This document shows, in pieces, positions 9,325 through 31,514 of a stretch of 64,000 nt of DNA; positions within the stretch are counted from its first letter, which is position 1; every line of letters starts with the position of its first letter. This stretch comes from Xenopus tropicalis (lineage: Eukaryota > Chordata > Amphibia > Anura > Pipidae). Where the stretch lies: NCBI RefSeq assembly GCF_000004195.4, contig NC_030680.2:1924964-1988963 (forward strand), read 5' to 3'. The position numbers and the translations under genes were made by a program. The notes below the pieces were generated by a model that was not told the DNA's origin, ran no database searches, and saw nothing but the letters and a program-made list of their open reading frames with translations.

Positions 9325-9395
9325 TGTATATATATATATTCACACTCACACACTCACACACACACACATATACTGTATATATATATATTCACACT

Positions 9396-9426
<31 letters not shown>

Positions 9427-9921: not shown

Positions 9922-10018
9922 ATGGGGCCCCCAGGGATACAGGAGAAACTGGGAATCGGCCTGAATCCCCCCGTCCTGTTCTGCTTTATACTGGTCTCTG
10001 TCTCACTGCCGGGAACTG
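9922..10018 (+). CDS. Exon 1: signal peptide
   Basis: The ATG at 9922 opens 32 codons plus one base, ending at a GTAAGT donor at 10019. The peptide has a long polar N-region (MGPPGIQEKLGIG), a hydrophobic core (VLFCFILVSVSL) and a PGTG end. This fits an ER signal peptide and closely matches the minus-strand paralogue from LGIG onward. The ATG was chosen because it is in frame and the next downstream ATG lies beyond the hydrophobic core. The exon sends the product to the secretory pathway and leaves phase 1 for the V exon. Confidence 0.85.
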
Positions 10019-13000
10019 GTAAGTACATTCCTATTCCCCCCAGTCTGGGTAACACTGTGCGGCTCTGTATAGTAATACTGAGTATCTAGTGACAGATCTG
10101 CCCCAGCTTTATTGGTTATAGAGAGGCCTGGCCCCTCCCAGTCTGGGGCGGGTAACACTGTGCGGCTCTGTATAGTAATACTGAGTATCTAGTGACAGAT
10201 CTGCCCCAGCTTTATTGGTTATAGAGAGGCCTGGCCCCTCCCAGTCTGGGGCGGGTAACACTGTGCGGCTCTGTATAGTAATACTGAGTATCTAGTGACA
10301 GATCTGCCCCAGCTTTATTGGTTATAGAGAGGCCTGGCCCCTCCCAGTCTGGGGCGGGTAACACTGTGCGGCTCTGTATAGTAATAATGAGTATCTAGTG
10401 ACAGATCTGCCCCAGCTTTATTGGTTATAGAGAGGCCTGGCCCCTCCCAGTCTGGGGTGGGTAACACTGTGCGGCTCTGTATAGTAATACTGAGTATCTA
10501 GTGACAGATCTGCCCCAGCTTTATTGGTTATAGAGAGGCCTGGCCCCTCCCAGTCTGGGGCGGGTAACACTGTGCGGCTCTGTATAGTAATACTGAGTAT
10601 CTAGTGACAGATCTGCCCCAGCTTTATTGGTTATAGAGAGGCCTGGCCCCTCCCAGTCTGGGGCAGGTATTACTGTGCGGCTCTGTATAGTAATACTGAG
10701 TATCTAGTGACAGACCTGCCCCAGCTTTATTGGTTATAGAGAGGCCTGGCCCCTCCCAGTCTGGGGCGGGTAACACTGTGCGGCTCTGTATAGTAGTACT
10801 GAGTATCTAGTGACAGATCTGCCCCAGCTTTATTGGTTATAGAGAGGCCTGGCCCCTCCCAGTCTGGGGCGGGTAACACTGTGCGGCTCTGTATAGTAAT
10901 ACTGAGTATCTAGTGACAGATCTGCCCCAGCTTTATTGGTTATAGAGAGGCCTGGCCCCTCCCAGTCTGGGGCAGGTATTACTGTGCGGCTCTGTATAGT
11001 AATACTGAGTATCTAGTGACAGACCTGCCCCAGCTTTATTGGTTATAGAGAGGCCTGGCCCCTCCCAGTCTGGGGCGGGTAACACTGTGCGGCTCTGTAT
11101 AGTAATACTAAGCATCTAGTGACAGATCTGCCCCAGCTTTATTGGTTATAGAGAGGCCTGGCCCCTCCCAGTCTGGGGCGGGTAACACTGTGCGGCTCTG
11201 TATAGTAATACTGAGTCTCACCTTCGGTTCTTACACCTCAGACCCAGTAGAAGTGAAAGTGAGCGACTCGCCAGTGAAAGTACTGAGGGACCAGGATGGG
11301 TTTATCCCATGTACAATCACTGGATACAGCAGCGCAGAACTGGACCTACAGCGCCTCTCTGTCCATTGGACCCTGGGATCCGGCCCAGTTTATATGTATG
11401 ACAGAGGCTCCCACAACCCCATCAGGCCGGGATCAGAACTAGACATTCGGCTGATTAAAGGCAACGCTGGGCTTTCCCTGGCGCGGGTACAAATCACTGA
11501 TGAGGGAGAATATACCTGCGCTGTTACCTACGATAATGAGCGGGCAGAGGGGAGATCTGCTCTGGAGGTGGCAGGTAAGTGGCCTTTAGTGCAATATAAG
11601 TACAGAGGGTAGCAGCCAATAGAAATACAGGCAGGGACAGTAAGGGTTGGGGCCTGGGAATGTTGCTTTACGGTGCAGTAGCCATGAGCGCTGTATGGAT
11701 AATACACTGATAATTATAACATATAACCATGGGGACGGCTGGCCGAATGACTTATAAAGCATCTTCCCATATTGCTGCTAGTTTGAATTAAGTTACCAGG
11801 CTTCCTGGCCAAAGGTTGGGCACTAAATTGCCCATGCCAAGGCTCTAAACAAAAATGTTACTGAAATGGCACTCAAAAACATTGTCAAAAATACAGTGGG
11901 GCTGACGTGGGCCATACCAAAAGGGAAACCCTGTAATATAACAGAGCTGAAGCTGTCCTGGGTGGGAGATTGGGCCAACACAGAACTGGGGGGTACCAAA
12001 CGCCAACATAGAACTGGTGGGTACCATTGGCCAACACAGAACTGGGGGGTACCAGGGCCAACATAGAACTGGTGGGTACCATTGGCCAACATAGAACTGG
12101 TGGGTACCATTGGCCAACATAGAACTGGTGGGTACCAGCGGCCAACATAGAACTGGTGGGTACCATTGGCCAACATAGAACTGGTGGGTACCATTGGCCA
12201 ACATAGAACTGGTGGGTACCAGCGGCCAACACAGAACTAGTGGGTACCATTGGCCAACATAGAACTGGTGGGTACCAGAGGCCAACATAGAACTGGTGGG
12301 TACCATTGGCCAACATAGAACTGGTGGGTACCATTGGCCAACATAGAACTGGTGGGGACCAGCGGCCAACATAGAACTGGTGGGTACCAGCGGCCAACAT
12401 AGATCTGGTGGGTACCAGCGGCCAACATAGAACTGGTGGGTACCATTGGCCAACATAGAACTGGTGGGTACCATTGGCCAACATAGAACTGGTGGGTACC
12501 AGCGGCCAACACAGAACTAGTGGGTACCATTGGCGAACACAGAACTGGTGGGTACCAGAGGCCAACATAGAACTGGTGGGTACCATTGGCCAACATAGAA
12601 CTGGTGGGTGCCAGCGGCCAACATAGAAATGGTGGGTACCAGCGGCCAACACAGAACTGGTGGGTACCATTGGCCAACACAGAACTGGTGGGTACCAGAG
12701 GCCAACATAGAACTGGTGGGTACCAGCAGCCAACACAAAACTGGTGGGTACCAGAGGCCAACATAGAACTGGTGGGTACCAGTGGCCAACATAGAACTGG
12801 TGGGTACCAGCGGCCAACATAGAACTCGTGGGTACCAGCGGCCAACATAGAACTGGTGGGTACCAGCAGCCAACACAAAACTGGTGGGTACCAGTGGCCA
12901 ACATAAAACTGGTGGGTACCAGTGGCCAACATAGAACTGGTGGGTACCATTGGCCAACATAGAACTGGTGGGTACCAGCGGCCAACATAGAACTGGTGGG

Positions 13001-16000
13001 TGCCAGTGGCCAACATAGAACTGGTGGGTACCAGTGGCCAACATAGAACTGGTGGGTACCAGCGGCCAACATAGAACTGGTGGGTACCATTGGCCAACAT
13101 AGTGTAAAGATCCATAGGAGGACAGGTGGTCTCTGAAGCCAAAACCATTGGCCGTTGATAAGGAACAGGGACATCAAGGCTGGAACTAGGAGTCGGCAGG
13201 AGAGGAGACTGAATAGGGCGCAATGGGGCTGAGGGCGCAATGTAAAGTAAAGATTAGATTAATATGTCCCTCATTTTTCTAAATATGTACTTGCTCTGCG
13301 TTGCTATGGGCTTGCTCTGCGTTGCTATGGGCTGACCTCTTCCTAATGCCCCTTCTCTCCCCGTGCAGTTAAACCCAGTGCCAGCCTGGTGCCCCCCGAC
13401 GTTATTATAGAGGAAGGAACAGAGGGGGGGGTTACATGCCGAGCCAGTAATTATTACCCAGAAACAATAAAGTTCCAGTGGATAAAACATCTCAATGACG
13501 GTGAACATGTTGTGCTGCGCCGAGGAGTCTCCACCAATGAGCCGCTAGAGAATGGGGACGGAACCTTCACTGTAACCAGTCAGCTGCTGTTAAAGCCTTC
13601 TATGGGGGATGATGGGGGAAAGTATTCCTGTGTCATATCCCACAGATCCCTGGGAGACTCTCTGGTTCTGGATTTTATTCTCTCTGTAAAGGGTAAGTAA
13701 AGGGTAAGTACTGCTGTAGGGTATAAGTACATATACTTAGATGGACAAGTATAATGGAAGTGATGCCGAACATGGTGATACATTCCCTCTGTTTGTTAAT
13801 ATTTATGTTTCCTGCCGTTACAGAGTCACATGTCCTGATGATCAGAGCTGTGATTGGCACACTGGCTGCCCTCATACTGCCGTTATGTATTTGGGGCTAC
13901 AAAACGCTTGTGAGAAACGGTAAGAACTGTAAAACATTAGTATTTTTGGAACTGTGGGAGGGCAGAGCCCCCAAAATGATTGATGGTCAAGTGGGTAACA
14001 AATATCACTTTCCTATTAGCACAAACCCTACAAACTCAGTCCATTGGGGTCCAAGGACAAGCCGCCATCTTGGTACACCTAATCCCTAAACTTCCTGCTC
14101 CTCCATCTTTTTACTCGGTGCCAGGAGAAACACAGACCATAATCATGGGCCCAGTGAGAACCTTTTGAAAGGGTTGTTATCATAAAGGTCGGTTCCCTGT
14201 TGGGTCCAGTTTCTACAATACCCAGAATCAGTGATCCACATGAGACTCTACTTTCCCCCAATGGCCAATAGATTATATTAAGGAGAAGAACAGGGTGACC
14301 ACATTTTTTTCCCTCCCCTTCAGTATTATTATAGACCTTCTGCTACGACACCCTCTATAGGGTACACACATTCAACCAAATCCAGAAGGCCCAAACCAAA
14401 TTGGAACCGTTACCATCACATGACTTGGGACCACTGGACAACTAAGAGTTTTTCTTATGCTGCACCTGTGAGATTCGGCCAGATTTTTTTGTGATGGATT
14501 CAGTTTTTTATTTCAGCTGCGAAACTGTGGATTTGGTGCAAACTTACCCTTTAACTACCCCTCTCAAAAGAGAATGAATATTGGGTCGGCCCATAGGACT
14601 AACCTTCTGCCGTCACTGTTACTGTTTCAGCCAATGGGTTTGTGTGTTTCAGAGCCGCCCAGACTTTCTCCAATAACGGGATCACAATATTTGCTCCATA
14701 TGAAAAAGGCAACTATGTTCTTCCAGATCTCAGGGTTCCGCCCCAAACCCATCCATATTTCTATACATTTGAAAAGAAAATGGGGCGAATCAACTGAAAT
14801 TTACTCCTGGAATTCTGAGGCACAAACTGGTTCCTCTGCCCCACGGAACAGCGACGGATCTGATACGGCAGAGATGGTCCCGTTGGTGAGAGATGGGGAT
14901 GGGCACAATCTGCCCCCTCTGCAGCTTCAGGTGGTTCCTGATGTAAAATCAAGTAAAAGGGGTATTTACTCCTGTCAGTGCACAATGTATATAACCCCCG
15001 ACATGCACGAAGATGATGGGGCAGAACTGACAGTGAGGGTCAATCACATGACTCTGATCTCTCCCATCTCTGTGTCCTGTCGGCTCAAAGTGCTGAAAGG
15101 TAAGAACATTTTCTGTTCTGTTTCCTCATTGCTGGGGTTGGTTTGGTTAGGGTTGGGTAGCATTGGATTGGGTAGCGTTGGGTTGGGTGGGGTTGGATTG
15201 GGTAGGGTGGGGTGGGGTTGGGTAGGGTTGGGTAGGATTTGGTAGGGCAGGGTAGCGTTGGGTTGGGTAGGGTGGAGTGGGGTTGGGTAGCGATGGGTTG
15301 GGTAGAGTAGGGTACAGTTGGGTTGGGTAGGGTGGGGTTCTAGGTAGGGTAGGGTGGGGTTGGGTTGGGTAGGGTAGGGTGGGGTGGGGTTGGGTAGGGT
15401 TGGGTAGGATTGGGTAGGGTAGGGTAGCGTTGGGTTGGGTAGGGTGGAGTGGGGTTGGGTAGCGATAGGTTGGGTAGAGTAGGGTTGGGTAGGGTAGGGT
15501 GGGGGTTGGTAGGGTAGGGTTGGGTTGGGTAGGGTAGGGTGGGGTTCTGGGTTGGGTAGGGTTGGGTGGGGTTGGGTAGGGTAGAGTAGGGTAGGGTTGG
15601 GTAGGGTGGGGTTCTGGGTTGGGTAGGGTGGGGTTCTGGGTTGGGTAGGGTAGGGTGGGGTTGGGTAGGGTAGGGTTGGGTAGGGTAGGGTTCGGTAGCG
15701 TTGGGTTGGGAAGCATTGGGTTGGGTTGGGTTGGGTAGGGTAGGGTTGGGTAGGGTTGGGTAGCATTTGGTTGGGTTGGGTAGGGTGGGGTGGGGTGGGT
15801 AGGGTGGGGTTGGGTTGGGTTGGTTGCTATTGTACTCCATGTATCTGATCATCTAAAGGTCTCATGTCCTTTACTTAAAGGAAAACTATCCCCCCAGAAT
15901 AAATACTTAACCAACAGATAGTTTATAATCTATTAAGTGGCCTATTAAAGAATCTCCCCAAACTGGAATATATATATCAGTAAATATTGCCCTTTTACAT

Positions 16001-19000
16001 CTTTTCCCTTGAGCCGCCATTTTGTGATGGGCTGTGTGTTCCCTCAGAGATCAGCTGACAGGAAGTGATGCAGGAAGTAGTGTGGGAGTAAATGACAGAA
16101 CTCTGCCCATTCATCGGCTCATGTGACCTAGCATGTATGTGTGCCATGGCTTGTTTGTGTGCACTGTGAATCATATGATCCCAGGAGGCGGGTCTTAGCA
16201 CTTAAAATGGTGGTTTCCTATTTAGGATTACCCAATAGCACATACTGCTAAAAAAGTATATTTTTATAGAGACCAACATTGTTTGGGGTGTAGTAGGTCT
16301 GGACATGTGTGTTCTTTTGGGTACAGACCCTTAGGGGACACTTTGGTCAATTAAATGCACCAATAGTGCTCATTTACAGCAGCTCCCCCCTTGCTTTACT
16401 TTAACAGAACCCCCAAAACCTTCTCCAATTGGGGGAGCGGAACGCCTGGTGCATCTGAGAAAATCGACCCTGCGCTGTCGGATCCCCGGGTCCCTGCCAG
16501 AACCCACTGAAATCACTTTATATTTGCAAAGAAAAGGCGAAGAACAGATTGAGATTCTCTCTTGGAAACCTGGGGGGAAAGCTCTGCCATTTACTGCAGT
16601 GTCACAAAGCGCTGAGGGGCAGGTGGCTAATAAGGCAAAAACAGAGCAGGAAGTGAGTAATGGAAATTCAGCGAGTCTGCCCCCGGCACAGAGGCCCCTG
16701 CGAGTGGAAATGGTTCCTGTAATAACAACAAGTACAAATGGCGACTCCAACTGTCAGTGCATAATCCATATAACCCCCGACATAGAGGAAGATGATGGGG
16801 CAGAACTGACTGTGAGGGTCACTCACTCTGAGCTGAGAGAACCCTACTCTGTATCCTGTCGGCTGGAGGTGAACGAAGGTTTGTTTTTATTTAATAACAT
16901 GGAAGAGATCAGTAAGGGCTATTGTGTAGCTCCGAGTGTGGCTCCGCATGCGGCTCCGTGTGTGGCTCCGTGTGTGGTTCCGCTTGTGGCTCCGCATGTG
17001 GCTCCGTGTGTGGCTCCGCGTGTGGCTCCGTGTGTGGTTCCGCTTGTGGCTCCGCATGTGGCTCCGTGTGTGGCTCCGTGTGTGGTTCCATTTGTGGCTC
17101 CGCGTGTGGCTCCGAGTGTGGGTTGATCAGTACTGATCAGTAGAAGGAATTGCCAGACCACGTTACACTAATTCACAGAAAGGGGGCGTCAGTCGTATTC
17201 TCTCAGAGCATTACTGGGGGGGCTAGTGATGTCCATCAAGCAAACAGGTCTCATTATATATATTTATTAGTTGGGTGGATTGGGGGACACTTATAGAGAT
17301 CCATAGGAGAGTAGACCTGGGCTTTATTATATTAGATGAACGAGGGAGGGGGGGCATTTATACAGACCTGCAGATACCCTGGGGCCTTTAATGATCGTTA
17401 GACTAAAGTGTGGGGCCCATTCATATATTGAATTGCTTCGTTATTACTTACAGATAAGTGAATATTCTGTGTGTATTAGTCAGATTGGCATTACTTTCCC
17501 TTTGCAGAGACAATGTTACTGGTGATGGATGAGGATTATACAGTGAGAGTTGCCCCACCGCCCCGGGACCCTACAGATAACTTCCACACGAGGGCAATAA
17601 CTCTGGGGAGACTTGAGGGATTAGATAACATTGCCCTGAGTCCTACTGGGAAACTCTTTGCCATCCGAGAGGGAAATCTCTACACCGGCCCAGTGTCGTC
17701 TTGTATCAACCAAATCTTGTTCTCCCTCGACCGAAGAATTGGGCGCGGTGCGTGGGACATGTTTAAACTCTTCTCAGTTGATCCCAGGGGGCTTCTCTGT
17801 GCAGTGGGGGATTCTGGATCAGTTTACTGGGGCCCCCGCCCAGAGGATGAAAGCCAGAACTGGGTTGGGGACCTGGGTGAATATGTAGGAAACTATAACT
17901 GCAGTGATACCGACTCTATCGTCTTCGACCCACAAGGGGCTTTATATGCAATAACAAGCAATGGTCGGATTCAGATGTGGGTCAGACCAGCAGAGACAGA
18001 CAGTGATTGGTTGGACTTGGGAACCGCACTCAGCCAAAGAGACGGCAGAGATTCCCCCCATGTGATCTCTTTCTGCCCTGAGGGAAACCTCTGGTGGGTC
18101 AGTAAGGCTGATGGCAAACTGTATAAAGGGCCCCAGCCAACTCAGGGGAACCCGGGGTATTGGGAGAAGGCCACGTTCTTGGGCCCCGACTATCATCGTT
18201 ACAGGCTATTTGGCTTCATCGGAGCAACGTTCATTCAGAAGATCCAGAGTTTCGAGTTCCTCCCTGAACTGGGGAAAATTGTCAAAGAAAGGAATATAAT
18301 AGTCAATACAGAGACCTATAATAACAGTACAGGGGGCACCACACTGAATGGCACTTACAGGTGAGTGATTTACATTCTTCTTCTTTTTCTTCCTTTTCTT
18401 CTTCTTTTTTCTTCTTCTTTTTTCTTCTTCTTTTTTCTTCTTCTTTTTTCTTCTTCATTTTCTTCTTCTTCTTTTCTTCTTTTTTTTTCTTCTTTTTTCT
18501 TCTTTTTCTTCCTTTTTTTCTTCTTCTTTTTCTTCTTCCTTTTCTTCTTTTTTCTTCTTTTTCTTCTTTTTTCTTCTTTATCTTCTTCCTTTTCTTCTTC
18601 TCTTTCTTCTTTTTTTCTTCTTCTTTTTCGTCTTCCTTTTCTTCTTTTTTCTTCTTTTTCTTCTTTTTTCTTCTTTTTTTTCTTCCTTTTCTTCTTTTTT
18701 CTTCTTTATCTTCTTCCTTTACTTCTTCTTTTTCTTCTTTTTTTATTATGCCACAGGAGAAGGTGCACAATGGACTAATGACATGGGGAAATAGTTGTAA
18801 GGAATTTTAGGAAGATGTTTTCTTCCCATAGACAGATAGTTGTACCAATGAGCTTATCACTGGATAAGATGGTGAAAGTGTGAGGAGCACAGGACTCTGA
18901 GGTTCTAAGACTGAGGCCTCACAGGGTTTATGGCCACTGCTTTCCTTGTGCATGTTTTACCCTGTGTCCCTCAGCCTTAAGCTGGTCAAATACAACATTG

Positions 19001-22000: not shown

Positions 22001-25000
22001 ACACACTAACCAATCCCAGCCCTGTCTGCCTTCTCCCTCTAGTCTCTGCCTATTCACTATTAATCATGCATACACACTAACCAATCCCAGCCCTGCCTTC
22101 TCCCTCTAGTCTCTGCCTATTCACTATTAATCATGCATACACACTAACCAATCCCAGCCCTGCCTTCTCCCTCTAGTCTCTGCCTATTCACTATTAATCA
22201 TGCATACACACTAACCAATCCCAGCCCTGCCTGCCTTCTCCCTCTAGTCTCTGCCTATTCACTATTAATCATGCATACACACTAACCAATCCCAGCCCTG
22301 CCTTCTCCCCTCTAGTCACTGCCTATTCACTATTAATCATGCATACACACTAACCAATCCCAGCCCTGCCTTCTCCCTCTAGTCTCCGCCTATTCACTAT
22401 TAATCATGCATTACACACTAACCAATCCCAGCCCTGCCTGCCTTCTCCCTCTAGTCTCTGCCTACTCACTATTAATCATGCATACACACTAACCAATCCC
22501 AGCCCTGCCTGCCTTCTCCCTCTAGTCTCTGCCTATTCACTATTAATCATGCATACACACTAACCAATCCCAGCCCTGCCTTCTCCCTCTAGTCTCCGCC
22601 TATTCACTATTAATCATGCATACACACTAACCAATCCCAGCCCTGCCTGCCTTCTCCCTCTAGTCTCTGCCTATTCACTATTAATCATGCATACACACTA
22701 ACCAATCCCAGCCCTGCCTGCCTTCTCCCTCTAGTCTCTGCCTATTCACTATTAATCATGCATACACACTAACCAATCCCAGCCCTGCCTGCCTTCTCCC
22801 TCTAGTCTCTGCCTATTCACTATTAATCATGCTTACACACTAACCAATCCCAGCCCTGCCTGCCTTCTCCCTCTAGTCTCCGCCATTCACTATTAATCAT
22901 GCATACACACTAACCAATCCCAGCCCTGCCTGCCTTCTCCCTCTAGTCTCCGCCTATTCACTATTAATCATGCATACACACTAACCAATCCCAGCCCTGT
23001 CTGCCTTCTCCCTCTAGTCTCTGCCTATTCACTATTAATCATGCATACACACTAACCAATCCCAGCCCTGCCTTCTCCCTCTAGTCTCTGCCTATTCACT
23101 AGTAATCATGCATACACACTAACCAATCCCAGCCCTGCCTGCCTTCTCCCTCTAGTCACTGCCTATTCACTATTAATCATACATACACACTAACCAATCC
23201 CAGCCCTGCCTTCTCCCTCTAGTCTCTGCCTATTCACTATTAATCATGCATACACACTAACCAATCACAGCCCTCCCTGCCTTCTCCCTCTAGTCACTGC
23301 CTATTCACTATTAATCATACATACACACTAACCAATCCCAGCCCTGCCTTCTCCCTCTAGTCTCTGCCTATTCACTATTAATCATGCATACACACTAACC
23401 AATCCCAGCCCTGCCTTCCCCCTCTAGTCACTGCCTATTCACTATTAATCATGCATACACACTAACCAATCCCAGCCCTGCCTTCTCCCTCTAGTCTCTG
23501 CCTATTCATTATTAATCATGCATACACACTAACCAATCCCAGCCCTGTCTGCCTTCTCCCTCTAGTCTCTGCCTATTCACTAGTAATCATGCATACACAC
23601 TAACCAATCCCAGTCCTATCTGTCCTATCCCTCTTGTCTCTGCCTATTGACACATGTCCTATATTTTAATGATCTCTAGAACTTAACCCATTCTATACTA
23701 TAACTATAGTCGTGTTTCTGGAGCAAACATGGAACTCTACCTGTGCAGGGCAATGGTACATTATATTCGACACTTGTCTGTTTTTGGGCAATAGAATTAC
23801 ATTTTTTGGCACATTCTATACAGAATTAGGGGGGCAGGTTTATCATTGAGCTCCCCTGTAGGTCTCGGCCAATGGGAATGCACATAAACACTCGACATCT
23901 GATTTCTTGGGTACAGATTAGGGGGAGACTCGAGTCAATTAACCCCTGTATTGCCATAGGGTGGAATAGGGAATGCAGATACAATGCCCATATATAACTG
24001 CATTAATATTAAGGACTAATCATTGTTATTAACCCAGGAATGGGCTCCACAGCTTTAACTGTAACATTATTTATCTACATTATAACCTGTGTAATGTGCA
24101 TGGCCTGTAGCCTCTGTATCTCTATGGGACCAATACAGCTCATTTACAGCAGCTCCCCCCTTGCTTTACATTAACAGAACCCCCAAAACCTTCTCCAATT
24201 GGGGGAGCGGAACGCCTGGTGCATCTGAGAAAATCCACCCTGAGCTGTCGGATCCCCGGGTCCCTGCCAGAACCCACTGAAATCACTTTATATTTGCAAA
24301 GAAAAGGCAAAGAACAGATTGAGATTCTCTCTTGGAAACCTGGGGAAAAACCTCTGCCATTTACTGCAGTGTCACAAAGTGCAGAGGGGCACTTGGCTGT
24401 TGAGCCAGAGAGAGAAGGGTTAGTGGGTAACGGGGAGACTAATCTGCCCCCGGCACAGAGGGCGCTGCGAGTGGAAATGGTTCCTGTAATAACAACAAGT
24501 AAAAATGGCGACTTCAACTGTCAGTGCACAATCCATATAACCCCCGACATAGAGGAAGATGATGGGGCAGAACTGACTGTGAGGGTCACTCACTCTGCCC
24601 TGAGGGGCCCCATCTCTAAGTCCTGTCGGCTGGAGGTGAATGAAGGTTTGTTTTTTATTTTATTCAATAATAATGAAGGGGGGAGCAGCAATCTAGTTAC
24701 TAGGGTCCAAATTATAGAAGCTATCTGGTTGCTAGGGTCCAAATTATAGAAGCTATCTGGTTGCTAGGCTCCAAATTATAGAAGCTATCTGGTTGCTAGG
24801 ATCCAAATTATAGAAGCTATCTGGTTGCTAGGGTCCAAATTATAGCAGGTATCTGGTTGCTAGGGTCCAAATTATAGAAGCTATCTGGTTGCCAGGGTCC
24901 AAATTATAGAAGCTATCTAGTTGCTAGGGTCCAAATTATAGAAGCTATCTGGTTACTAGGGTCCAAATTATAGAAGCTATCTGGCTACTAGGGTCCAAAT

Positions 25001-28000
25001 TATAGAAGCTATCTGGTTACTAGGGTCCAAATTATAGAAGCTATCTGGTTACTAGGGTCCAAATTATAGAAGCTATCTGGTTACTAGGGTCCAAATTATA
25101 GAAGCTAGCTAATTGCTAGGATTTAAATTACTCGAGCGACTAAGCAGAGATGTGAGTGAGACACTGAGATATGAATAGGGGGATAGAAAGGTAAGTAATA
25201 AAATGTAAAAATATCAATAAAATTGTAAACAGTAGTTTCTTTTAGAAGAAAAAGGCAAATAATTCAAAAACTATTTAAAAAAAAAATGAAGACCATTCAA
25301 AAAGTTTCTATGAATTTTTCATTCTATAACCTACTAAAAGTCAAATTGAAGGTGAACTGCCCCTTTAAAGTATGTTACACTAGTATGTGGGGTCCATTTA
25401 TATATTGAATAGCTGATATAATTTACAGATACACCGATGAATGAGGGAGGGGGGGCATTTATACCTGCAGATACCCTGGGGCCTTTAATGATCGTTAGAC
25501 TAAAGTGTGGGGCCCGTTCATATATTGAATTGCTTCATTATTACTTACAGGTAAGTGAATATTCTGTGTATTAGTCAGATTGGCATTACTTTCCCTTTGC
25601 AGAGACAATGTTACTGGTGATGGATGAGGATTATACAGTGAGAGTTGCCCCCCCGCCCCGGGACCCTACAGATAACTTCCACACGAGGGCAATAACTCTG
25701 GGGAGACTTGAGGGATTAGATAACATTGCCCTGAGTCCTACTGGGAAACTCTTTGCCATCCGAGAGGGAAATCTCTACACCGGCCCAGTGTTGTCTTGTG
25801 TCAACCAAATCTTGTTCTCCCTCGACCGAAGAATTGGGTGCGGTGCGTGGGACGTGTTTAAACTCTTCTCAGTTGATCCCAGGGGGCTTCTCTGTGCAGT
25901 GGGGGATTCTGGATCACTTTACTGGGGCCCCCGCCCAGAGGATGAAAGCCAGAACTGGGTTGGGGACCTGGGTGAATATGTAGGAAACTATAACTGCAGT
26001 GATACCGACTCTATCGTCTTCGACCCACAAGGGGCTTTATATGCAATAACAAGCGATGGTCGGATTCAGATGTGGGTCAGACCAGCAGAGACAGACAGTG
26101 ATTGGTTGGACTTGGGAACCGCACTCAGCCAAAGAGACGGCAGAGATTCCCCCCATGTGATCTCTTTCTGCCCTGAGGGAAACCTCTGGTGGGTCAGTAA
26201 GGCTGATGGCAAACTGTATAAAGGGCCCCAGCCAACTCAGGGGAACCCGGGGTATTGGGAGAAGGCCACGTTCTTGGGCCCCGACTATCATCGGTACAGG
26301 CTATTTGGCTTCATCGGAGCAACGTTCATTCAGAAGATCCAGGACTTTGAGTTCCTCCCTGAACTGGGGGAAATTGTCACAGAAAGGAATATGATATTAA
26401 TGGAAGAGACCTATGATAACGGCGACGGGGGCGGCACATTAAATGAGACTTTCAGGTGAGTGATTTACCCTCTCTTATTACTGAGCCCCCGGGGAACGAT
26501 GCTATTGATTCTATGGATTTAGTTTTCTTCCCACCAGTAACCCCCCCAAATGGGATTCTAGAAAAACATTGTCTTAATTATGAAACAATTGTACATATAC
26601 AGTAAGTAATGGGAATAATGAGACAATGGCAAGTAAATAGCAGATATTAATCCTTTCTTTCATTCAGTTTCAGGAAATCCATAAAGGAAGTGAGCAGATT
26701 TATTCATGATCATAACATTGTGTTTGTGGGGGAGGCAGAAACCACTTTCACCGGGGGGATTCCTGTTATTGGCATGGAAAGGGCTTCCAGGATTTCCCTC
26801 GATAATAACGTCACTCACCGGTGGGATTTCACCAACACCAATGAGCGAGAGGTAACGGGATCAGAGAATAATGTACCCCCTACTGTATAGTGTAAGGATA
26901 TTATAAGTCACTGAGGGGTTCTGTGCCCCCCATATAAAGGCACAAGGCTGCAGGCTGAGTTATACAGGGAACTCTGAGTATCACTCATGTATTATAAGGG
27001 ATAATGTACCCCCTACTGTAAATGATAAGGATATTAGCAGTCACTGAGGGGTTCTGTGCCCCCCATATAAAGGCACAAGGCTGCAGGCTGAGTTATACAG
27101 GGAACTCTGAGTATCACTCATGTATTATAAGGGATAATGTACCCCCTACTGTAAATGATAAGGATATTAGCAGTCACTGAGAGGTTCTGTGCCCCCCATA
27201 TAAAGGCACAAGGCTGCAGGCTGAGTTATACAGGGAACTCTGAGTATCACTCATGTATTATAAGGGATAATGTACCCCCTACTGTAAATGATAAGGATAT
27301 TAGCAGTCACTGAGGGGTTCTGTGCCCCCCATATAAAGGCACAAGGCTGCAGGCTGAGTTATACAGGGAACTCTGAGTATCACTCATGTATTATAAGGGA
27401 TAATGTACCCCCTACTGTAAATGATAAGGATATTAGCAGCCACTGAGGGGCTCTGTGCCCATATAAAGGCACAAGGCTGCAGGCTGAGTTATACAGGGAA
27501 CTCTGAGTATCACTCATGTATTATAAGGGATAATGTACCCCTACTGTAAATGATAAGGATATTAGCAGTCACTGAGGGGTTCTGTGCCCCCCATATAAAG
27601 GCACAAGGCTGCAGGCTGAGTTATACAGGGAACTCTGAGTATCACTCATGTATTATAAGGGGTAATGTACCCCCTACTGTAAATGATAAGGATATTAGCA
27701 GTCACTGAGGGGTTCTGTGCCCCCCATATAAAGGCACAAGGCTGCAGGCTGAGTTATACAGGGAACTCTGAGTATCAAACAGTCACTATTTATTGGGCTG
27801 GGGGGGCTGTTTGTGCCTCTCGGTACTGGGAATGCCGGGGGGGCTGTAAGGTGCCACAGACAGTCACTATTTATTGGGCTGGGGGGGCTGCTTGTGCCTC
27901 TGGGTACTGGGAATGCCAGGGGGGCTGTAAGGTGCCACAGACAGTCACTATTTATTGGGCTGGGGGGGCTGTTTGTGCCTCTCGGTACTGGGAATGCCGG

Positions 28001-28808
28001 GGGGGCTGTAAGGTGCCACAGACAGTCACTATTTATTGGGCTGGGGGGGCTGCTTGTGCCTCTGGGTACTGGGAATGCCAGGGGGGCTGTAAGGTGCCAC
28101 AGACAGTCACTATTTATTGGGCTGGGGGGGGGGGCTGTTTGTGCCTCTGGGTACTGGGAATGCCGGGGGGGCTGTAAGGTGCCACAGACAGTCACTATTT
28201 ATTGGGCTGGGGGGGCTGTTTGTGCCTCTGGGTACTGGGAATGCCGGGGGGCTGTAAGGTGCCACAGACAGTCACTATTTATTGGGCTGGGGGGGGCTGT
28301 TTGTGCCTCTGGGTACTGGGAATGCCAGGGGGGCTGTAAGGTGCCACAGACAGTCACTATTTATTGGGCTGGGGGGGGCTGTTTGTGCCTCTGGGTACTG
28401 GGAATGCCAGGGGGGCTGTAAGGTGCCACAGACAGTCACTATTTATTGGGCTGGGGGGGCTGTTTGTGCCTCTGGGTACTGGGAATGCCAGGGGGGCACA
28501 ATGACTGATTCTGAACATTTTGTTCTTTATTTTAGGTGACTTTATCGCTACAAGAACCTGTTGTGGTTGGAAGTGGGAAAACTGTACGTATGGGGGCGTC
28601 AGTCCAGAAAGCCAGAATAAGTGTTGCCTACAGGGTCCGGCTCCTCACAGCCCAAGGCCGCACTGTAACCATTGGGGGCAGCTGGGAAGGGACCACCTTC
28701 TATAATCTGAGGGCGGTACCAAGAGAAGCCCGGGGCAGGGGGAAGCATTTGGGCTTTACAAGAACAGACAGTTGGGAGGAGGAGACCCACTCTAATTACT
28801 CTGATTAA
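9922..28808 (+). CDS. Predicted 13-exon Ig - tachylectin - aerolysin fusion gene
   Basis: The gene model joins 9922-10018, 11242-11574, 13369-13692, 13824-13919, 14653-15099, 16408-16878, 17508-18360, 19397-19580, 20014-20368, 24178-24645, 25603-26455, 26668-26851 and 28536-28808. The exon lengths sum to 4938 nt, exactly 1646 codons including the stop, and every junction keeps frame. Domain order is signal peptide, V, C1, TM, C1-like, C1-like, tachylectin-2, aerolysin-like, then C1-like, tachylectin-2, aerolysin-like. All donors are GT except GC at 20369. The N-terminal half looks like a B7/butyrophilin-type receptor and the C-terminal half like a lectin-guided pore-former. The data do not prove a single transcript. 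The TM exon could be skipped, or the locus could make separate receptor and effector products. Intron repeats are not conserved between the two modules. Confidence 0.55.
10045..11217. repeat. 103-bp tandem repeat in intron 1
   Basis: About 11 highly similar copies with a 103-bp period, measured between successive AGTATCTAGTGACAG phrases. It fills intron 1 from just after the donor to 24 bp before the V exon acceptor AG, so little unique intron sequence remains. Confidence 0.95.
11242..11574 (+). CDS. Exon 2: Ig V-set domain
   Basis: This exon has 111 codons, phase 1-1, with acceptor TTACACCTCAG and donor GTAAGT at 11575. It encodes a V-set Ig domain: Cys in FIPCTITGY, Trp in VHWTLGSG, and a DEGEYTCAV F-strand with the second Cys. 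The VYMYDRG segment recalls B7/butyrophilin V domains. In the mature protein it would be N-terminal and ligand-binding by analogy with that family. The first two thirds are nearly the same as the minus-strand V exon and the final third is diverged. I see no J-like segment or recombination signal, so it is not a rearranging receptor. Orthology to B7-H6, NKp30 or the Xenopus MHC-linked XMIV genes cannot be decided here. Confidence 0.9.
11575..11974. other. Intron 2, unique part
   Basis: Ordinary non-coding intron sequence between the V exon and the 28-bp array. No exon or known repeat was recognised. Confidence 0.5.
11975..13104. repeat. 28-bp minisatellite in intron 2
   Basis: About 40 copies of a 28-bp unit (GGCCAACATAGAACTGGTGG plus GTACC and a short variable ending ATT, AGC or AGT). 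The variable tri-nucleotide alternates in a mosaic, consistent with unequal exchange. Minus-strand open frames up to 451 codons across it are artefacts. Confidence 0.95.
13369..13692 (+). CDS. Exon 3: Ig C1-set domain
   Basis: This exon has 108 codons, phase 1-1, with acceptor CCCCGTGCAG and donor GTAAGT at 13693. The pattern GVTCRASNYYPETIKFQW is the classic C1-set B-C strand signature (Cys, Tyr-Pro, then Trp). DDGGKYSCVISH supplies the F-strand Cys and the trailing His typical of C1 domains. Like C1 domains in B7-H6, butyrophilin and tapasin, it would form the membrane-proximal domain before the TM exon. V followed by C1 is the ectodomain of that group. Confidence 0.9.
13824..13919 (+). CDS. 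Exon 4: transmembrane segment
   Basis: This exon has 32 codons, phase 1-1. It encodes a stretch of about 20 hydrophobic residues (AVIGTLAALILPLCIWGY), preceded by an Arg (MIRAV) and followed by a basic KTLVRN stop-transfer segment. This is a type I membrane anchor. The Arg at the outer membrane border recalls activating receptors that pair with acidic adaptors, but it may simply lie outside the bilayer. Because the exon is symmetric, skipping it would give a soluble product with the frame intact. If retained with the downstream exons, the lectin and pore modules would be placed in the cytosol. That fits poorly with their cysteines and function. Confidence 0.8.
13920..14652. other. Intron 4
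   Basis: Unique non-coding sequence. The reading frame of the next exon stays open upstream to an ATG at 14574 and includes LLPSLLLFQP. That could act as an alternative signal-peptide-like start, but it coincides with the polypyrimidine tract of a good acceptor and is more likely intron. Confidence 0.45.
14653..15099 (+). CDS. Exon 5: divergent C1-like Ig domain without the B-strand Cys
   Basis: This exon has 149 codons, phase 1-1. It is homologous to exons 6 and 10: EPPRLSP matches EPPKPSP, the ITPDMHEDDGAELTVRVNH block is nearly the same as theirs, and it ends SVSCRLKV. The B-strand position reads ATMFFQISG where the other two read STL[RS]CRIPG, so the usual B-strand Cys is Phe. A YSCQC motif and a late SCRLKV Cys remain. 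In all three copies the expected F-strand Cys position is Val (AELTVRVTH), so the disulfide pattern differs from a standard C1 domain. The family is not one I can name more precisely than C1-like. Confidence 0.75.
15125..15830. repeat. G-rich pentamer array
   Basis: About 700 bp of interspersed GGGTT, GGGTA and GGGGT pentamers on the plus strand, just after the exon 5 donor. Dense G3-4 runs predict G-quadruplex capacity in the transcribed RNA and on the plus strand. The unit is not the vertebrate telomere hexamer. Confidence 0.95.
15875..16293. mobile_element. T2-type MITE in intron 5
   Basis: It starts TTAAAGGAAAACTATCCCCC and ends near ACATTGTTTGGGGTGTAG. The interior phrases ACAGATAGTTTATAATC, ATATTGCCCTTTTACATC and GATTACCCAATAGCACATAC are typical of an abundant Xenopus T2-type MITE. 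The outer right terminal repeat is eroded. It is absent from the corresponding place before exon 10. Confidence 0.75.
16408..16878 (+). CDS. Exon 6: C1-like Ig domain, first module
   Basis: This exon has 157 codons, phase 1-1, with acceptor TTAACAG and donor GTTTGT at 16879. It carries STLRCRIPGSLPEPTEITLYL, a B-C region with Cys and a Pro-rich turn. A long variable loop follows (about residues 60-90). Then come NCQCIIHITPD, DDGAELTVRVTH and a late SCRLEV Cys. It is about 90% similar to exon 10 outside the variable loop, where the two differ in length and sequence (VANKAKTEQEV versus LAVEPEREGLV). It directly precedes the propeller exon and forms a cassette with it. Its binding partner is unknown. 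Confidence 0.78.
16925..17122. repeat. 12-bp minisatellite
   Basis: About 16 copies of a 12-bp unit (GTGTGGCTCCGC and variants) in intron 6. It is absent from the paralogous intron before 25603. The unit is divisible by three, so all frames stay open artefactually. Confidence 0.93.
17508..18360 (+). CDS. Exon 7: tachylectin-2-type beta-propeller, first module
   Basis: This exon is 853 nt, entering in phase 1 and leaving in phase 2, with donor GTGAGT at 18361. It encodes about 284 residues. The blade pattern is of tachylectin-2 type: WDMFKLFSVDPRGLLCAV, then DSIVFDPQGALYAIT, then ISFCPEGNLWWVS, each followed by a short phrase with G and Y/W such as GKLYKGPQP. Tachylectin-2 is a five-bladed propeller that binds GlcNAc, so a sugar-binding or targeting role is likely. 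From about FEFLPELG the sequence leaves the propeller and begins the first strands of the aerolysin-like module, continuing into exon 8. The paralogue at 25603 differs at about six positions in the propeller but at about thirteen in the last 38 residues. Confidence 0.88.
18370..18752. repeat. Polypyrimidine (TTC/TTTC) tract
   Basis: About 380 bp of almost pure C/T on the plus strand, starting 10 bp after the exon 7 donor. Mirror-like TTCTTCTTTT blocks could form triplex (H-DNA). It is absent from the paralogous intron after 26455. The Lys/Glu-rich minus-strand frame across it is an artefact. Confidence 0.95.
18753..19396. other. Intron 7, unique part
   Basis: Non-coding; I see no exon or recognisable repeat. 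The last 80 bp (AATGGGAATAATGAGA onward) are conserved with the paralogous intron before 26668. Confidence 0.5.
19397..19580 (+). CDS. Exon 8: aerolysin-like module, first half (module 1)
   Basis: This 184-nt exon, phase 2 in and phase 0 out, is bounded by CATTCAG and GTAACC. It continues the beta-rich fold begun at the end of exon 7. GEAETTFTGGIPVIG matches the Gly-Ile-Pro motif of natterin/aerolysin/ETX-MTX2 proteins, followed by a strand pair ending RWDFTNTNERE. In that superfamily this region sits near the membrane-inserting hairpin and the stem strands. It is almost the same as the exon at 26668 except for three changes near its start. The product would oligomerise into a beta-barrel pore by family analogy; activity is not shown. 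Confidence 0.82.
19600..19965. mobile_element. AT-rich MITE-like insertion in intron 8
   Basis: This segment is absent from the paralogous intron, where sequence diverges right after GTAAC[CG]GGATCAG. It is rich in TTCGAATT/ACTCGAATT-type phrases and ends GGATAAATAAGCCCC, resembling a common Xenopus short DNA element. The terminal repeats could not be delimited exactly. Confidence 0.45.
20014..20368 (+). CDS. Exon 9: aerolysin-like module, second half, plus basic linker
   Basis: This exon has phase 0 in (acceptor CGTTTAG). The first part runs VTLSLQEAVAVGSGKTVRMG to a VPYRVRL strand and a GGSWEGTTFY strand, matching the C-terminal strands of aerolysin-like folds. A tail of about 45 residues follows that the module-2 copy lacks in this form. 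It begins RGRGRKKRSYPK, where RKKR|S fits a furin-type R-X-K/R-R site, and it is very rich in Asp, Glu and Arg. At 20369 an AAAG|GCAAGT sequence is a strong GC-AG donor in phase 1, compatible with exon 10. If unspliced, the frame stops at 20419-20421, but no AATAAA lies nearby, which favours splicing. Confidence 0.72.
20481..20629. mobile_element. T2-type MITE left end
   Basis: The sequence begins TTAAAGGGGCACTAAATGC, a T2-type terminus, and continues AT-rich into the 71-bp array. No matching right end was found near 23650. The array may have grown inside this element. Confidence 0.5.
20630..23645. repeat. 71-bp tandem array in intron 9
   Basis: About 43 copies of a 71-bp unit, with a common 67-bp variant that drops a CCTG. 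Each unit contains CCCTCTAGTCTCTGCCTATT, a CATGCATACACAC phrase and ACCAATCCCAG. The reversed-CCAAT-like ACCAAT occurs once per unit. The unit resembles an internal piece of the MITE at 713-1217 (935-1010). The array lies between the two effector modules. Confidence 0.95.
23646..24177. other. Intron 9, 3' part
   Basis: Non-coding. No exon is recognised apart from the acceptor at its end. The last 50 bp before 24178 match the sequence preceding exon 6, marking the left part of the module duplication. Confidence 0.5.
24178..24645 (+). CDS. Exon 10: C1-like Ig domain, second module
   Basis: This exon has 156 codons, phase 1-1, with acceptor TTAACAG and donor GTTTGT. It is the paralogue of exon 6. 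It carries STLSCRIPG, a variable loop (SAEGHLAVEPEREGL), NCQCTIHITPD, DDGAELTVRVTH and SKSCRLEV. The flanking introns are also related at their exon-proximal ends, so the Ig + propeller + pore cassette was duplicated as a block. The variable loop differs from exon 6 while the framework is conserved, suggesting the loop may be the functionally diversifying surface. Confidence 0.78.
24690..25118. repeat. 32-bp array grown inside a MITE
   Basis: About 13 copies of a 32-bp unit built on TGGTTGCTAGGGTCCAAATT. That phrase is also a normal single-copy internal part of a common Xenopus MITE whose remaining 3' half follows directly at 25119-25368. The array therefore arose by internal tandem expansion of that element. 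Confidence 0.9.
25119..25368. mobile_element. 3' half of a T2-type MITE
   Basis: It contains AGTAATAAAATGTA, GGCAAATAATTCAAAAACTA, ATGAAGACCATTCAAAAAG and CATTCTATAACCTACTAAAA, and ends GGTGAACTGCCCCTTTAA. This is the typical right end (TTAAAGGGGCAGTTCACC inverted) of an abundant Xenopus element. The left terminus is missing. Confidence 0.7.
25603..26455 (+). CDS. Exon 11: tachylectin-2-type beta-propeller, second module
   Basis: This 853-nt exon is the same length and phase as exon 7. Its blade motifs WDVFKLFSVDPRGLLCAV, DSIVFDPQGALYAIT and ISFCPEGNLWWVS are preserved. Differences in the propeller are few (for example SSCIN to LSCVN and RIGRG to RIGCG, the latter adding a Cys). The C-terminal 38 residues leading into the pore-forming fold differ heavily (NMILMEETYDN against NIIVNTETYNN). 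A carbohydrate-binding role is inferred from the tachylectin-2 family. Confidence 0.88.
26668..26851 (+). CDS. Exon 12: aerolysin-like module, first half (module 2)
   Basis: This 184-nt exon is phase 2 in and phase 0 out. It is the paralogue of exon 8 with the same GGIPVIG motif and NTNERE end. Only the first few residues differ (SFRKSIKE against SFKETIKE). The donor GTAACG is weak but shared with the first module. Confidence 0.82.
26868..27776. repeat. 133-bp tandem repeat in intron 12
   Basis: About seven copies with a 133-bp period, measured between successive AATGTACCCCCTACTG phrases. The copies are nearly the same, with small deletions in the fifth. The array begins within about 20 bp of the exon 12 donor. 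Confidence 0.95.
27777..28505. repeat. 81-bp tandem repeat in intron 12
   Basis: About nine copies of an 81-bp unit (CAGTCACTATTTATTGGGCT start). Length varies in a G7-G10 run, and positions alternate CAGG/CCGG and GGTACT/CGGTACT. Two further copies at 31066-31215 precede the duplicated exon. Confidence 0.95.
28536..28808 (+). CDS. Exon 13: aerolysin-like module, second half, with stop
   Basis: This exon enters in phase 0 after TTTATTTTAG and encodes 90 residues ending in TAA at 28806-28808. It carries VTLSLQEPVVVGSGKTVRMG, a V[AP]YRVRL strand and GGSWEGTTFY, paralogous to exon 9. After RGRGK the tail is short and acidic (SWEEETHSNYSD) and lacks the RKKR motif and the linker of exon 9. This would be the natural C-terminus of the long product. 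AATAAA follows at 28909. Confidence 0.82.
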   Translation: MTLSLQEPVVVGSGKTVRMGASVQKARISVAYRVRLLTAQGRTVTIGGSWEGTTFYNLRAVPREARGRGKHLGFTRTDSWEEETHSNYSD

Positions 28809-28908
28809 ACTACTTTGCCTTAATATGAGTCTCCACAAAATGGCGCCTGTCTGAAGCTCTGATTGGGGATACAAGAGAAAACAAGATTTAAATAATTTAT
28901 ATGTTCTA

Positions 28909-28914
28909 AATAAA
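28909..28914 (+). terminator. Poly(A) signal of the fusion gene
   Basis: A canonical AATAAA 100 bp after the stop, followed by GTTTATTTTG, a T/G-rich downstream element. It is repeated at 31624 in duplication copy B. Confidence 0.7.
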
Positions 28915-28974
28915 GTTTATTTTGCTCGGTTTATACAATAAACCAGGATTTGGAATTATTTCTTGGGGTGCCAG

Positions 28975-30300
28975 GTCCCCACTATGGGTTGTCTGGGAGT
29001 TGGACATTATTACAAGGCCCATTGGTCTGGGGCTGGGGGTCACTGTACAGTAAGGCTAACACTGACACCTACTGGGAGTATCTGGAATTGCCCCTGTACC
29101 CACCTTTACAGACCCTCACTGGCTGCATATTGGGGGGGTCTAAGTAACTGGGAATGATACTGATCAGCAATGGAAATGATATTCCACCTCCTTTGGAGTC
29201 TGGGCAGGGTAAATGCACCTGGGCAGCTTGGTACCCCCTATGGAAGCAGTCAGGATAGATACCCCAGTCCTCAGGTTGATACCCCTAGCGTGTGAGTAGG
29301 GATCAAGGTTTATTTTAACCTGTCTCCTATCTCTACCCCGTGGCCCTACTGCTGAGGCAACATTGCCGGATGGAAGAAATACTTCCTACTACTTTCCTTG
29401 GTGGGGCTGGAAAACTGCCCTTGCTTCCTTCCCTTTCTACCTCACTCCCCTAGAGAGAGCTTGACTAGAGTAACTATCTAACTAATCCTCATTCATGGGG
29501 CCCTGTCCCCGACTTCACCAGAGTGGATGTTGTCATTCTGGGGTAAATGGCTTTACTGGGGCCTGTTTCTGCTCCCAGGCTCAGTGGTCCTTCACCCGAG
29601 AAGCAGAGGCAGCTAAAGAGGAAGCCACACCCTCCTGCTAGACACTATATTAGTCTGCAGGGGGCGTGTACAACCCTAATAACCAATAAGATATAAGGCA
29701 TAGTGCCAACTAGATACATGGGGCTCTGCCCAGTAACAGTAATAAAAAGAACTGGTAGGGGATTAAAGCCATAGGAGGGCTAAACCCTATGGGCCCCTAC
29801 ATTCACCCAGGGGAATATAGGGAATATAATTACATATGTTCAAGCATAATAAGCAGTGCATGAATTAGTGCAAAAATAACACAGTACCAACATCCTTCCA
29901 TTCCTTCCAACCCCCGTACCCCGTAAGAGGCAGAAAAGGCAATGGGTCCCACCTAAAGGCAGGTTCAGGTAGAAGTTGGAGTGAGGGCTCAGCAGTCCTG
30001 TCTCTAGAACCCAACTATTTACAGTCAATTGTCTCTCCAAGGAGAGGGTTCAACAAATTAAATGAGCAAGCCCATTATTGTGGGGCAACAAACGGCAGAG
30101 CAGGGTCACACCCTAGATGTCTCAAACGTAGAGGGAGTCTCTAGGTGTGGAGCAAATTGGTGGAAGATCCGGGTATATGATGGTACCTATGGATTTCTCC
30201 CACCCTCCCGGGTACACAATTCCTCAAGTCTGAGGAAACCAATTAGGACTTCAGAAGTGGCGGTCATACTTGGCCCTTGTGTCCTCAAAGGAGATTTTGA
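28975..30300. other. 3' flank, non-coding, duplicated
   Basis: No exon is supported. It contains dispersed-looking sequence (for example around 29640-29830), with short minus-strand open frames and no recognised domain. The whole stretch recurs at 31690-33015. Confidence 0.4.
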
Positions 30301-31250: not shown

Positions 31251-31514
31251 GTGACTTTATCGCTACAAGAACCTGTTGTGGTTGGAAGTGGGAAAACTGT
31301 ACGTATGGGGGCGTCAGTCCAGAAAGCCAGAATAAGTGTTCCCTACAGGGTCCGGCTCCTCACAGCCCAAGGCCGCACTGTAACCATTGGGGGCAGCTGG
31401 GAAGGGACCACCTTCTATAATCTGAGGGCGGTACCAAGAGAAGCCCGGGGCAGGGGGAAGCATTTGGGCTTTACAAGAACAGACAGTTGGGAGGAGGAGA
31501 CCCACTCTGATTAA
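31251..31514 (+). CDS. Duplicated terminal pore-module exon (orphan or alternative last exon)
   Basis: This is a copy of exon 13 with an intact acceptor (TTTATTTTAG) and an open frame to a TAA at 31512-31514. It differs by A to P in V[AP]YRVRL and by a shorter end (THSD rather than THSNYSD). No preceding Ig, propeller or GGIP exon was duplicated with it. It can only be used as an alternative last exon spliced from 26851, or it is a non-functional remnant. An AATAAA lies at 31624. Confidence 0.6.
   Translation: MTLSLQEPVVVGSGKTVRMGASVQKARISVPYRVRLLTAQGRTVTIGGSWEGTTFYNLRAVPREARGRGKHLGFTRTDSWEEETHSD

What the first reader, a model, noticed from the sequence alone, without database searches (positions are those of the whole stretch)
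9922..28808. Ig receptor ectodomain fused in frame to lectin-propeller and aerolysin-like pore modules
Thirteen predicted exons with compatible phases sum to exactly 1646 codons. They place B7/butyrophilin-like V and C1 domains and a TM segment upstream of Ig-like, tachylectin-2 and aerolysin-like domains, twice. Recognition Ig domains joined to a sugar-binding, pore-forming effector would be a new immune architecture. I know aerolysin folds fused to crystallin, DM9 or jacalin-like domains, but not to Ig domains.
Basis: partly seen in the sequence, partly recalled or inferred. Interest (0 to 1): 0.93.

Follow-up and report, generated by a model that had tools for sequence, protein, structure and literature searches.

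The report
Frog Ig receptor–lectin–pore fusion gene
A genome that is likely a frog's carries thirteen exons in one unbroken reading frame that are predicted to be spliced into a single protein joining antibody-like recognition domains to two sugar-binding, aerolysin-like modules that would punch holes in membranes; a 2011 paper described the same layout in a related frog but suspected an artefact, and this locus and its copies suggest that it is probably real.

Summary
Thirteen exons have matching phases, no internal stops and total 4938 nt, exactly 1646 codons including the stop; 11 of 12 introns are GT-AG, one is GC-AG. V-set, C1-set and tachylectin-2 pass Pfam cut-offs. The aerolysin call fails Pfam, but two exon profiles hit aerolysin-fold proteins in the PDB, collinearly on one of them. 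Phase match and lack of poly-A signals say little about fusion. Better evidence: all three lectin-bearing units found on this contig have V, C1, TM and Ig upstream on the same strand, and no signal-peptide first exon was found in the key introns. The 'new architecture' claim is not supported: Szczesny et al. 2011 (PMC3110756) reported Ig tandem, TM and duplicated tachylectin-2/aerolysin in Xenopus laevis, suspected a false CDS, and said X. tropicalis lacks it. Preferred mechanism, inferred: the symmetric 96-nt TM exon can be skipped, giving a secreted, lectin-guided pore former. No transcript was available.

The parts
9922..10018 (+). Exon 1: start codon and predicted signal peptide (32 codons + 1 nt)
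   Evidence: found by the first-exon scan
11242..11574 (+). Exon 2: Ig V-set domain
   Evidence: Pfam V-set 28.3 bits, cut-off 26; best PDB match CD276, E 3.5e-13
13369..13692 (+). Exon 3: Ig C1-set domain
   Evidence: Pfam C1-set 45.5 bits; PDB: IgA1 heavy chain first, B7-H6 (3PV6, 6YJP) fifth and sixth
13824..13919 (+). Exon 4: predicted transmembrane segment, 96 nt, phase 1-1 (symmetric)
14653..15099 (+). Exon 5: Ig-like (C1-like) domain
   Evidence: alignment A4
16408..16878 (+). Exon 6: Ig-like (C1-like) domain; weak donor GTTTGT
17508..18360 (+). Exon 7: tachylectin-2 propeller plus a C-terminal stretch that is probably the start of the aerolysin-like part
   Evidence: Pfam PF14517 126.1 bits; 1TL2 E 1.4e-16, profile E 1.2e-48
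19397..19580 (+). Exon 8: aerolysin-like, middle part
   Evidence: profile A2: sole PDB match at E up to 10 is the Laetiporus hemolytic lectin LSL, residues 192-244, E 0.0039
20014..20368 (+). Exon 9: aerolysin-like, last part, then a linker with RKKR; GC donor, else runs to a stop at 20419
   Evidence: profile A3: natterin-like protein 5ZU4 E 7.4e-4, LSL residues 255-308 E 0.0024
24178..24645 (+). Exon 10: Ig-like domain of module 2; weak donor GTTTGT
   Evidence: 84% identical to exon 6
25603..26455 (+). Exon 11: tachylectin-2 propeller, module 2
   Evidence: Pfam PF14517 123.6 bits; 93% identical to exon 7
26668..26851 (+). Exon 12: aerolysin-like, middle part, module 2
   Evidence: 95% identical to exon 8
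28536..28808 (+). Exon 13: aerolysin-like, last part, and stop codon
   Evidence: 89% identical to exon 9 over the 65 residues aligned
28909..28914 (+). poly-A-type hexamer AATAAA, 101 nt past the stop
31251..31511 (+). Duplicate of exon 13 in a tandem copy of at least 2.66 kb (99% identical), with its own AATAAA at 31624

Best explanation
The thirteen exons are predicted to form one gene of what is likely a frog, whose product would join B7-like V and C1 Ig domains to two Ig-like - tachylectin-2 - aerolysin-like modules, and which likely acts as an immune effector that binds target surfaces through its Ig and lectin domains and would then insert pores. Shown: the frame, the exon order, the V, C1 and tachylectin domains, the same V-C1-TM-Ig-lectin-pore order in the three lectin-bearing units found in this cluster, and a symmetric 96-nt TM exon. 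Inferred: (1) one transcript spans E1-E13; (2) leaving the TM exon out, which keeps the frame, gives a secreted form, while keeping it gives a membrane form; (3) the RKKR site after module 1 is cut in the secretory route, separating the two modules; (4) the aerolysin-like parts oligomerise into a membrane pore on sugar-bearing targets. Origin (inferred): a secreted, Ig-less lectin-pore gene of the type still present on contig C1 was captured downstream of a B7-type receptor gene.
For: Frame and phases. The genome search found 8 tachylectin exons, 4 on C4 and 4 on C1; the 4 on C4 fall into 3 units, and in 3 of 3 V, C1, a TM exon and an E5/E6-type Ig exon lie upstream on the same strand. The unit at 2.185-2.192 Mb has E1, V, C1, TM, Ig, lectin, E8 and E9 within about 7.2 kb. 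Between it and the window the TM, Ig, lectin and E9 exons have diverged (dS 0.98, 0.56, 0.20, 0.17; E8 only 0.03) and there is no DNA match at E 1e-10 between window 13710 and 14633, yet order and splice phase are kept. A first-exon scan finds no signal-peptide exon in the E4-E5, E5-E6, E6-E7 or E9-E10 introns; it recovers 5 of 6 known E1 exons and fires in 8 of 172 3-kb windows of the cluster, some of which hold known E1 exons. A C1 lectin locus has a signal-peptide-like exon about 1 kb upstream, whose relative lies at a second C1 locus (91% over 34 columns, start Met not in the match), so the module looks ancestrally secreted. Szczesny et al. report the same layout in an X. laevis protein.
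Against: No transcript was examined. If the TM exon is included, everything after it would face the cytosol, an odd place for a lectin and pore former. The V-C1 block is 97% identical between window and 2.19-Mb unit while Ig, lectin and E9 blocks are 75-88% (E8 block 94-96%), as expected if the parts were separate genes, or after gene conversion. Poly-A hexamers do not help: none in E4-E5 and E9-E10, but shuffles expect only 0.67 and 2.2 there, and E5-E6 holds three and E10-E11 two. Four other V-C1-TM-Ig units have such hexamers in the TM-Ig intron: 2.19-Mb unit 2, gene B 9, gene C 1, 2.02-2.09-Mb unit 15 in 26 kb. E6 and E10 donors are weak and the E9 donor is GC. The E9-E10 intron is mostly a 71-bp tandem repeat, so finding no first exon there says little. 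No signal-peptide exon was found upstream of the lectin at a third C1 locus (chr1a). Szczesny et al. suspected a false CDS and place Ig and lectin-toxin of X. tropicalis in separate ORFs.
Confidence: 0.48

Rival explanations
1. Two adjacent genes: a B7-like receptor (E1-E4 plus an unseen tail) and a separate Ig-lectin-pore gene beginning near E5, duplicated together.
For: The V-C1 part and the 3' part differ in divergence between units. Minus-strand gene A has V, C1 and TM with no E5/E6-type Ig or lectin exon matched after it before gene B. Szczesny et al. put Ig and lectin-toxin of X. tropicalis in separate ORFs.
Against: No signal-peptide first exon found in the E4-E5, E5-E6 or E6-E7 introns (scan recall 5 of 6); the E5/E6-type Ig exon follows V-C1-TM in 5 of 5 units seen, two of them without lectin; X. 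laevis protein reported with both parts.
Confidence: 0.22
2. One gene with the TM exon always included: V-C1 outside the cell, and Ig-lectin-pore modules tethered in the cytosol, to act on damaged or infected compartments.
For: A TM exon is present in all three lectin units found, and the X. laevis protein is reported to contain a TM motif between the Ig tandem and the lectin part.
Against: Post-TM exons of neighbouring genes B and C are ordinary Ig domains: 6 of 7 exons tested pass at least one Pfam Ig cut-off, with cysteines in the usual places by eye, which points to an oxidising, extracellular setting. Two C1 relatives look secreted.
Confidence: 0.12
3. The two modules are separate: E9 is a terminal exon that runs to the stop at 20419-20421 and module 2 belongs to another transcript.
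For: E9 is open to that stop without the GC splice; its relatives on contig C4 end in stops.
Against: No first exon found between E9 and E10, though that intron is mostly repeat; the GC donor has the usual GC-AG consensus (recalled) and the right phase; the X. laevis protein is reported with the duplicated module.
Confidence: 0.13
4. A decaying, unexpressed fusion kept only by recent duplication.
For: dN/dS between C4 copies is 0.43-0.91 for Ig exons and 0.57-2.64 for lectin exons.
Against: No stop or frameshift in 13 exons; lectin exons of C1 copies a and b show dN/dS about 0.13 (dS saturated, so rough), and E8/E9 of C4 versus C1 copies 0.18-0.33.
Confidence: 0.05

Closest known systems
X. 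laevis LOC494812 (Szczesny et al. 2011, PMC3110756)
   Same: Ig tandem, TM motif, then duplicated tachylectin-2-like plus aerolysin-like domains
   Different: Its authors suspected a false CDS and said X. tropicalis lacks it. I did not have its sequence, so post-TM Ig domains and exon order were not compared.
X. tropicalis LOC613112 (same paper) and the four C1 lectin loci here
   Same: Tachylectin-2 followed by aerolysin-like part; C1 lectin exons 33-38% identical to E7
   Different: No Ig exon matched upstream: 2 loci checked over about 7 kb, the other 2 only over 1.5 kb. That LOC613112 is one of the C1 loci is not shown.
Laetiporus sulphureus hemolytic lectin LSL (1W3A) and natterin-like protein 5ZU4
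   Same: Lectin plus aerolysin-fold pore domain (recalled); E8 and E9 profiles match 192-244 and 255-308 of LSL
   Different: Other lectin folds; no Ig domains (recalled)
B7 family, B7-H6 type
   Same: V then C1 then TM; C1 matches B7-H6 structures, V matches CD276 best
   Different: B7 receptors carry no lectin or pore modules (recalled); orthology not tested
beta-gamma-CAT of Bombina maxima (PMC10206775, start of abstract seen)
   Same: Amphibian aerolysin-family pore former fused to other domains
   Different: Crystallin domains in place of Ig and tachylectin

Membership tests
Tachylectin-2 (PF14517) | Profile match over the curated cut-off | tested here: met
   126.1 and 123.6 bits against 29.8; profile to 1TL2 E 1.2e-48
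Tachylectin-2 (PF14517) | GlcNAc/GalNAc sites kept in all five blades | tested here: inconclusive
   In alignment A1 a Trp in each of two blades is present in 4 of 4 C1 copies and absent in 4 of 4 C4 copies; which residues bind sugar was not looked up and binding cannot be tested
Aerolysin-like superfamily | Pfam aerolysin-type model match (exons scanned apart) | tested here: not met
   No family at E up to 1 for E8, E9, E12, E13; short pieces lower the power
Aerolysin-like superfamily | Sequence profile similarity to solved aerolysin-fold proteins, collinear | tested here: met
   E8: LSL 192-244, the only hit; E9: natterin-like 5ZU4 250-313 and LSL 255-308, the top two of 15. E-values are modest (7.4e-4 to 0.0039)
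Aerolysin-like superfamily | Forms oligomeric beta-barrel pores | not testable with these tools
   Needs purified protein
B7-type Ig receptors | Signal peptide, V-set, C1-set, TM in this order | tested here: met
   (signal peptide and TM by hydrophobicity only)
B7-type Ig receptors | Phylogenetic place within the B7 family | not tested
   PDB matches mix CD276, B7-H6, PD-L1, TAPBPR, titin and antibodies
Ig domain (E5, E6, E10) | Ig fold | tested here: inconclusive
   C1-set matched by 3 of 8 members of A4 at E up to 1, best 0.013; PDB profile hit to an IgA chain E 2e-4 over 22 positions only; model pLDDT 65.9 matches Ig-type chains, best E 2.1e-3
X. laevis LOC494812-type architecture | Ig tandem - TM - tachylectin/aerolysin, duplicated | tested here: met
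   Exon order in the window against the published description; the sequence itself was not available, and joint splicing is not shown

The most novel reading that the evidence does not exclude
Frogs have evolved a germline family of one-chain immune killers in which B7-type Ig domains are built into the same polypeptide as a lectin-guided aerolysin pore, with one symmetric TM exon as the switch between a surface receptor and a secreted, antibody-like pore former, spread by exon shuffling and evolving fast at its Ig end.
Probability: 0.33. Interest if true: 0.87.

Novelty: new member of a known kind. Interest (0 to 1): 0.62.

Why it matters
Recognition by Ig domains and killing by pores are normally split between molecules (antibody, complement, perforin). 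A vertebrate gene that holds both would be a rare direct fusion. A published but doubted frog protein layout appears here as an intact exon series with two further chromosomal units, so the question can be settled with one long-read cDNA experiment.

Tried and rejected
Protein search of E7 in the 5.8-billion set: 816 candidates, none at E up to 0.001. AlphaFold model of E7: pLDDT 55.8, too poor, so no fold search was made with it. Paper searches: in the listings shown (titles and starts of abstracts, 2 to 20 rows each; held more papers than they listed) I saw no second description of the Ig-lectin-aerolysin layout beyond PMC3110756. Only that paper was opened (12 of 16 passages, and part 1 of 2 of section 7); the others were not read. 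A paper on Xenopus B7H6/NKp30 clusters that I recall is not held, so its contents are not used. Donor scores printed used several boundaries that were one or more bases off; the exon table replaces them.

Full report
WHAT IS THERE. The window lies at contig C4:1924964-1988963 of a 1.45-Gb, 167-contig genome. I rebuilt the exon model from the raw sequence. Acceptors are AG in 12 of 12; donors GT in 11 of 12 and GC in one (E9, AAAG|GCAAGT). E6 and E10 share a weak donor (GTTTGT).

DOMAINS. E2 is a V-set and E3 a C1-set domain over Pfam's cut-offs; E7 and E11 are tachylectin-2 propellers (126.1 and 123.6 bits against 29.8). E4 codes for a hydrophobic, TM-like segment. E5, E6 and E10 are related to each other and are Ig-like only by weaker evidence: C1-set in 3 of 8 relatives at E up to 1, best 0.013; profile hits to an IgA chain (E 2e-4 over 22 positions) and, above E 0.05, to CD1, IgY, TCR and beta-2-microglobulin chains; and a medium-confidence model (pLDDT 65.9) whose 50 listed Foldseek matches look by title like Ig-type chains (TCR, Fab, nanobody, nectin, MPZ), none with E of 0.001 or better. 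The aerolysin-like exons match no Pfam family alone. Profiles from six copies each do better: E8's only PDB match is the aerolysin-fold lectin LSL at residues 192-244 (E 0.0039), and E9's top two of 15 are a natterin-like protein (E 7.4e-4) and LSL at 255-308 (E 0.0024). Two exon profiles reaching the same protein in the right order is good support, though each E-value is modest.

ONE GENE OR TWO? Phase match is not decisive, since the V, C1, TM and Ig exons are all phase 1-1. Two better tests follow. (a) The genome search found 8 tachylectin exons, 4 on C4 and 4 on C1. The C4 exons form three units: the window (two lectin exons), 2.02-2.09 Mb, and 2.185-2.192 Mb. In 3 of 3, V, C1, TM and an E5/E6-type Ig exon precede the lectin on the same strand; the last unit, with its E1, spans only about 7.2 kb. 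The 2.02-2.09-Mb unit is loose (32 kb from C1 to Ig; E9 26.6 kb after E8) and may not be one gene. Between window and 2.19-Mb unit, TM, Ig, lectin and E9 exons have dS 0.98, 0.56, 0.20 and 0.17, E8 only 0.03, and the DNA around the TM exon no longer matches at E 1e-10, yet order and phase persist. (b) A scan for signal-peptide first exons finds none in the E4-E5, E5-E6, E6-E7 and E9-E10 introns, nor in the TM-Ig intron of the 2.19-Mb unit; it recovers 5 of 6 known E1 exons and fires in 8 of 172 3-kb windows of the cluster, known E1 exons included. The E9-E10 intron is mostly a 71-bp tandem repeat, so for that junction the scan says little.

POLY-A SIGNALS DO NOT DECIDE. AATAAA/ATTAAA is absent from 10 of the 12 introns, E4-E5 and E9-E10 among them, but shuffled introns would hold only 0.67 and 2.2 there; three hexamers lie in E5-E6 and two in E10-E11, and one lies 101 nt after the E13 stop. 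Hexamers also occur in the TM-Ig introns of the other four V-C1-TM-Ig units (2, 9, 1 and 15).

AGAINST ONE GENE. The V-C1 block is 97% identical between the two units while Ig, lectin and E9 blocks are 75-88% (E8 94-96%): the 5' part has been copied or converted apart from most of the 3' part. And an included TM helix would put the lectin-pore part in the cytosol.

NEIGHBOURS. On the minus strand upstream, gene A (partly in the window) has V, C1 and TM, with no E5/E6-type Ig or lectin exon matched before gene B. Genes B and C have V, C1, TM, an E6-type Ig exon and then further Ig-like exons; 6 of 7 of those tested pass at least one Pfam Ig cut-off. So TM followed by Ig exons is the house style of this cluster, with or without lectin: an E5/E6-type Ig exon follows V-C1-TM in 5 of 5 units in which such an Ig exon was seen. 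Ordinary disulfide-type Ig domains after a TM exon are easiest to understand if the TM exon is optional (inference). It is 96 nt and symmetric, so skipping keeps the frame. On contig C1, one lectin locus has a signal-peptide-like exon about 1 kb upstream with a relative at a second locus (91% over 34 columns, the start Met outside the match); at a third (chr1a) the scan found none and the fourth was not scanned. No Ig exon matched upstream (about 7 kb in 2 loci, 1.5 kb in the other 2). These are likely the secreted, Ig-less ancestor type.

MECHANISM (inferred). Secreted form: Ig and propeller domains bind the target, RKKR in the E9 linker is cut and separates the modules, and the aerolysin-like parts assemble a pore. 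Surface form: the TM exon is kept. A Trp in each of two propeller blades is present in 4 of 4 C1 copies and missing in 4 of 4 C4 copies, so sugar specificity may have changed.

WHAT IS KNOWN. Szczesny et al. 2011 (PMC3110756) describe X. laevis LOC494812: Ig tandem, TM, duplicated tachylectin-2 plus aerolysin; they call it possibly a false CDS and absent from X. tropicalis, where Ig and lectin-toxin lie in separate ORFs. The listings of seven paper searches showed me no other description; those other papers were not opened. The window shows that the exons for the whole layout exist in order in what is probably X. tropicalis, which argues against the false-CDS view and for a conserved gene, but does not prove the transcript.

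VERDICT. Observation confirmed; one gene likely; architecture already in print though doubted; function untested. Interest 0.62.

Noticed in passing
window 1-700 and locus L014 (minus strand): Gene A: V-C1-TM receptor gene running away from the finding (V 80% and C1 79% identical to E2 and E3); no E5/E6-type Ig or lectin exon matched after its TM before gene B.
   Followed up: partly
L009-L014, C4:1875000-1917000 (minus strand): Genes B and C: V, C1, TM, an E6-type Ig exon, then further C1-like Ig exons after the TM exon.
   Followed up: partly
window 11244-11570 and 13371-13691: Versus the 2.19-Mb unit the V and C1 exons show more replacement than silent change (V 6:1, C1 8:1): possible diversifying selection, but counts are tiny and untested.
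   Followed up: no
window 28401-31060 and 31114-33775: Tandem duplication of at least 2.66 kb, 99% identical, that copies exon 13 with its poly-A hexamer, a possible alternative last exon.
   Followed up: partly
window 36973-59409: About 22 kb of 27-bp-unit minisatellite that fills the ORF list with spurious frames.
   Followed up: no
window 7066-9573: CA-rich 43-45-bp repeat array that opens spurious frames of up to 901 codons just upstream of exon 1.
   Followed up: no
C4:1992044-1992139 (locus L015): A second exon 1 identical at the protein level (32 of 32 residues), 57 kb downstream on the same strand: perhaps another receptor copy.
   Followed up: no
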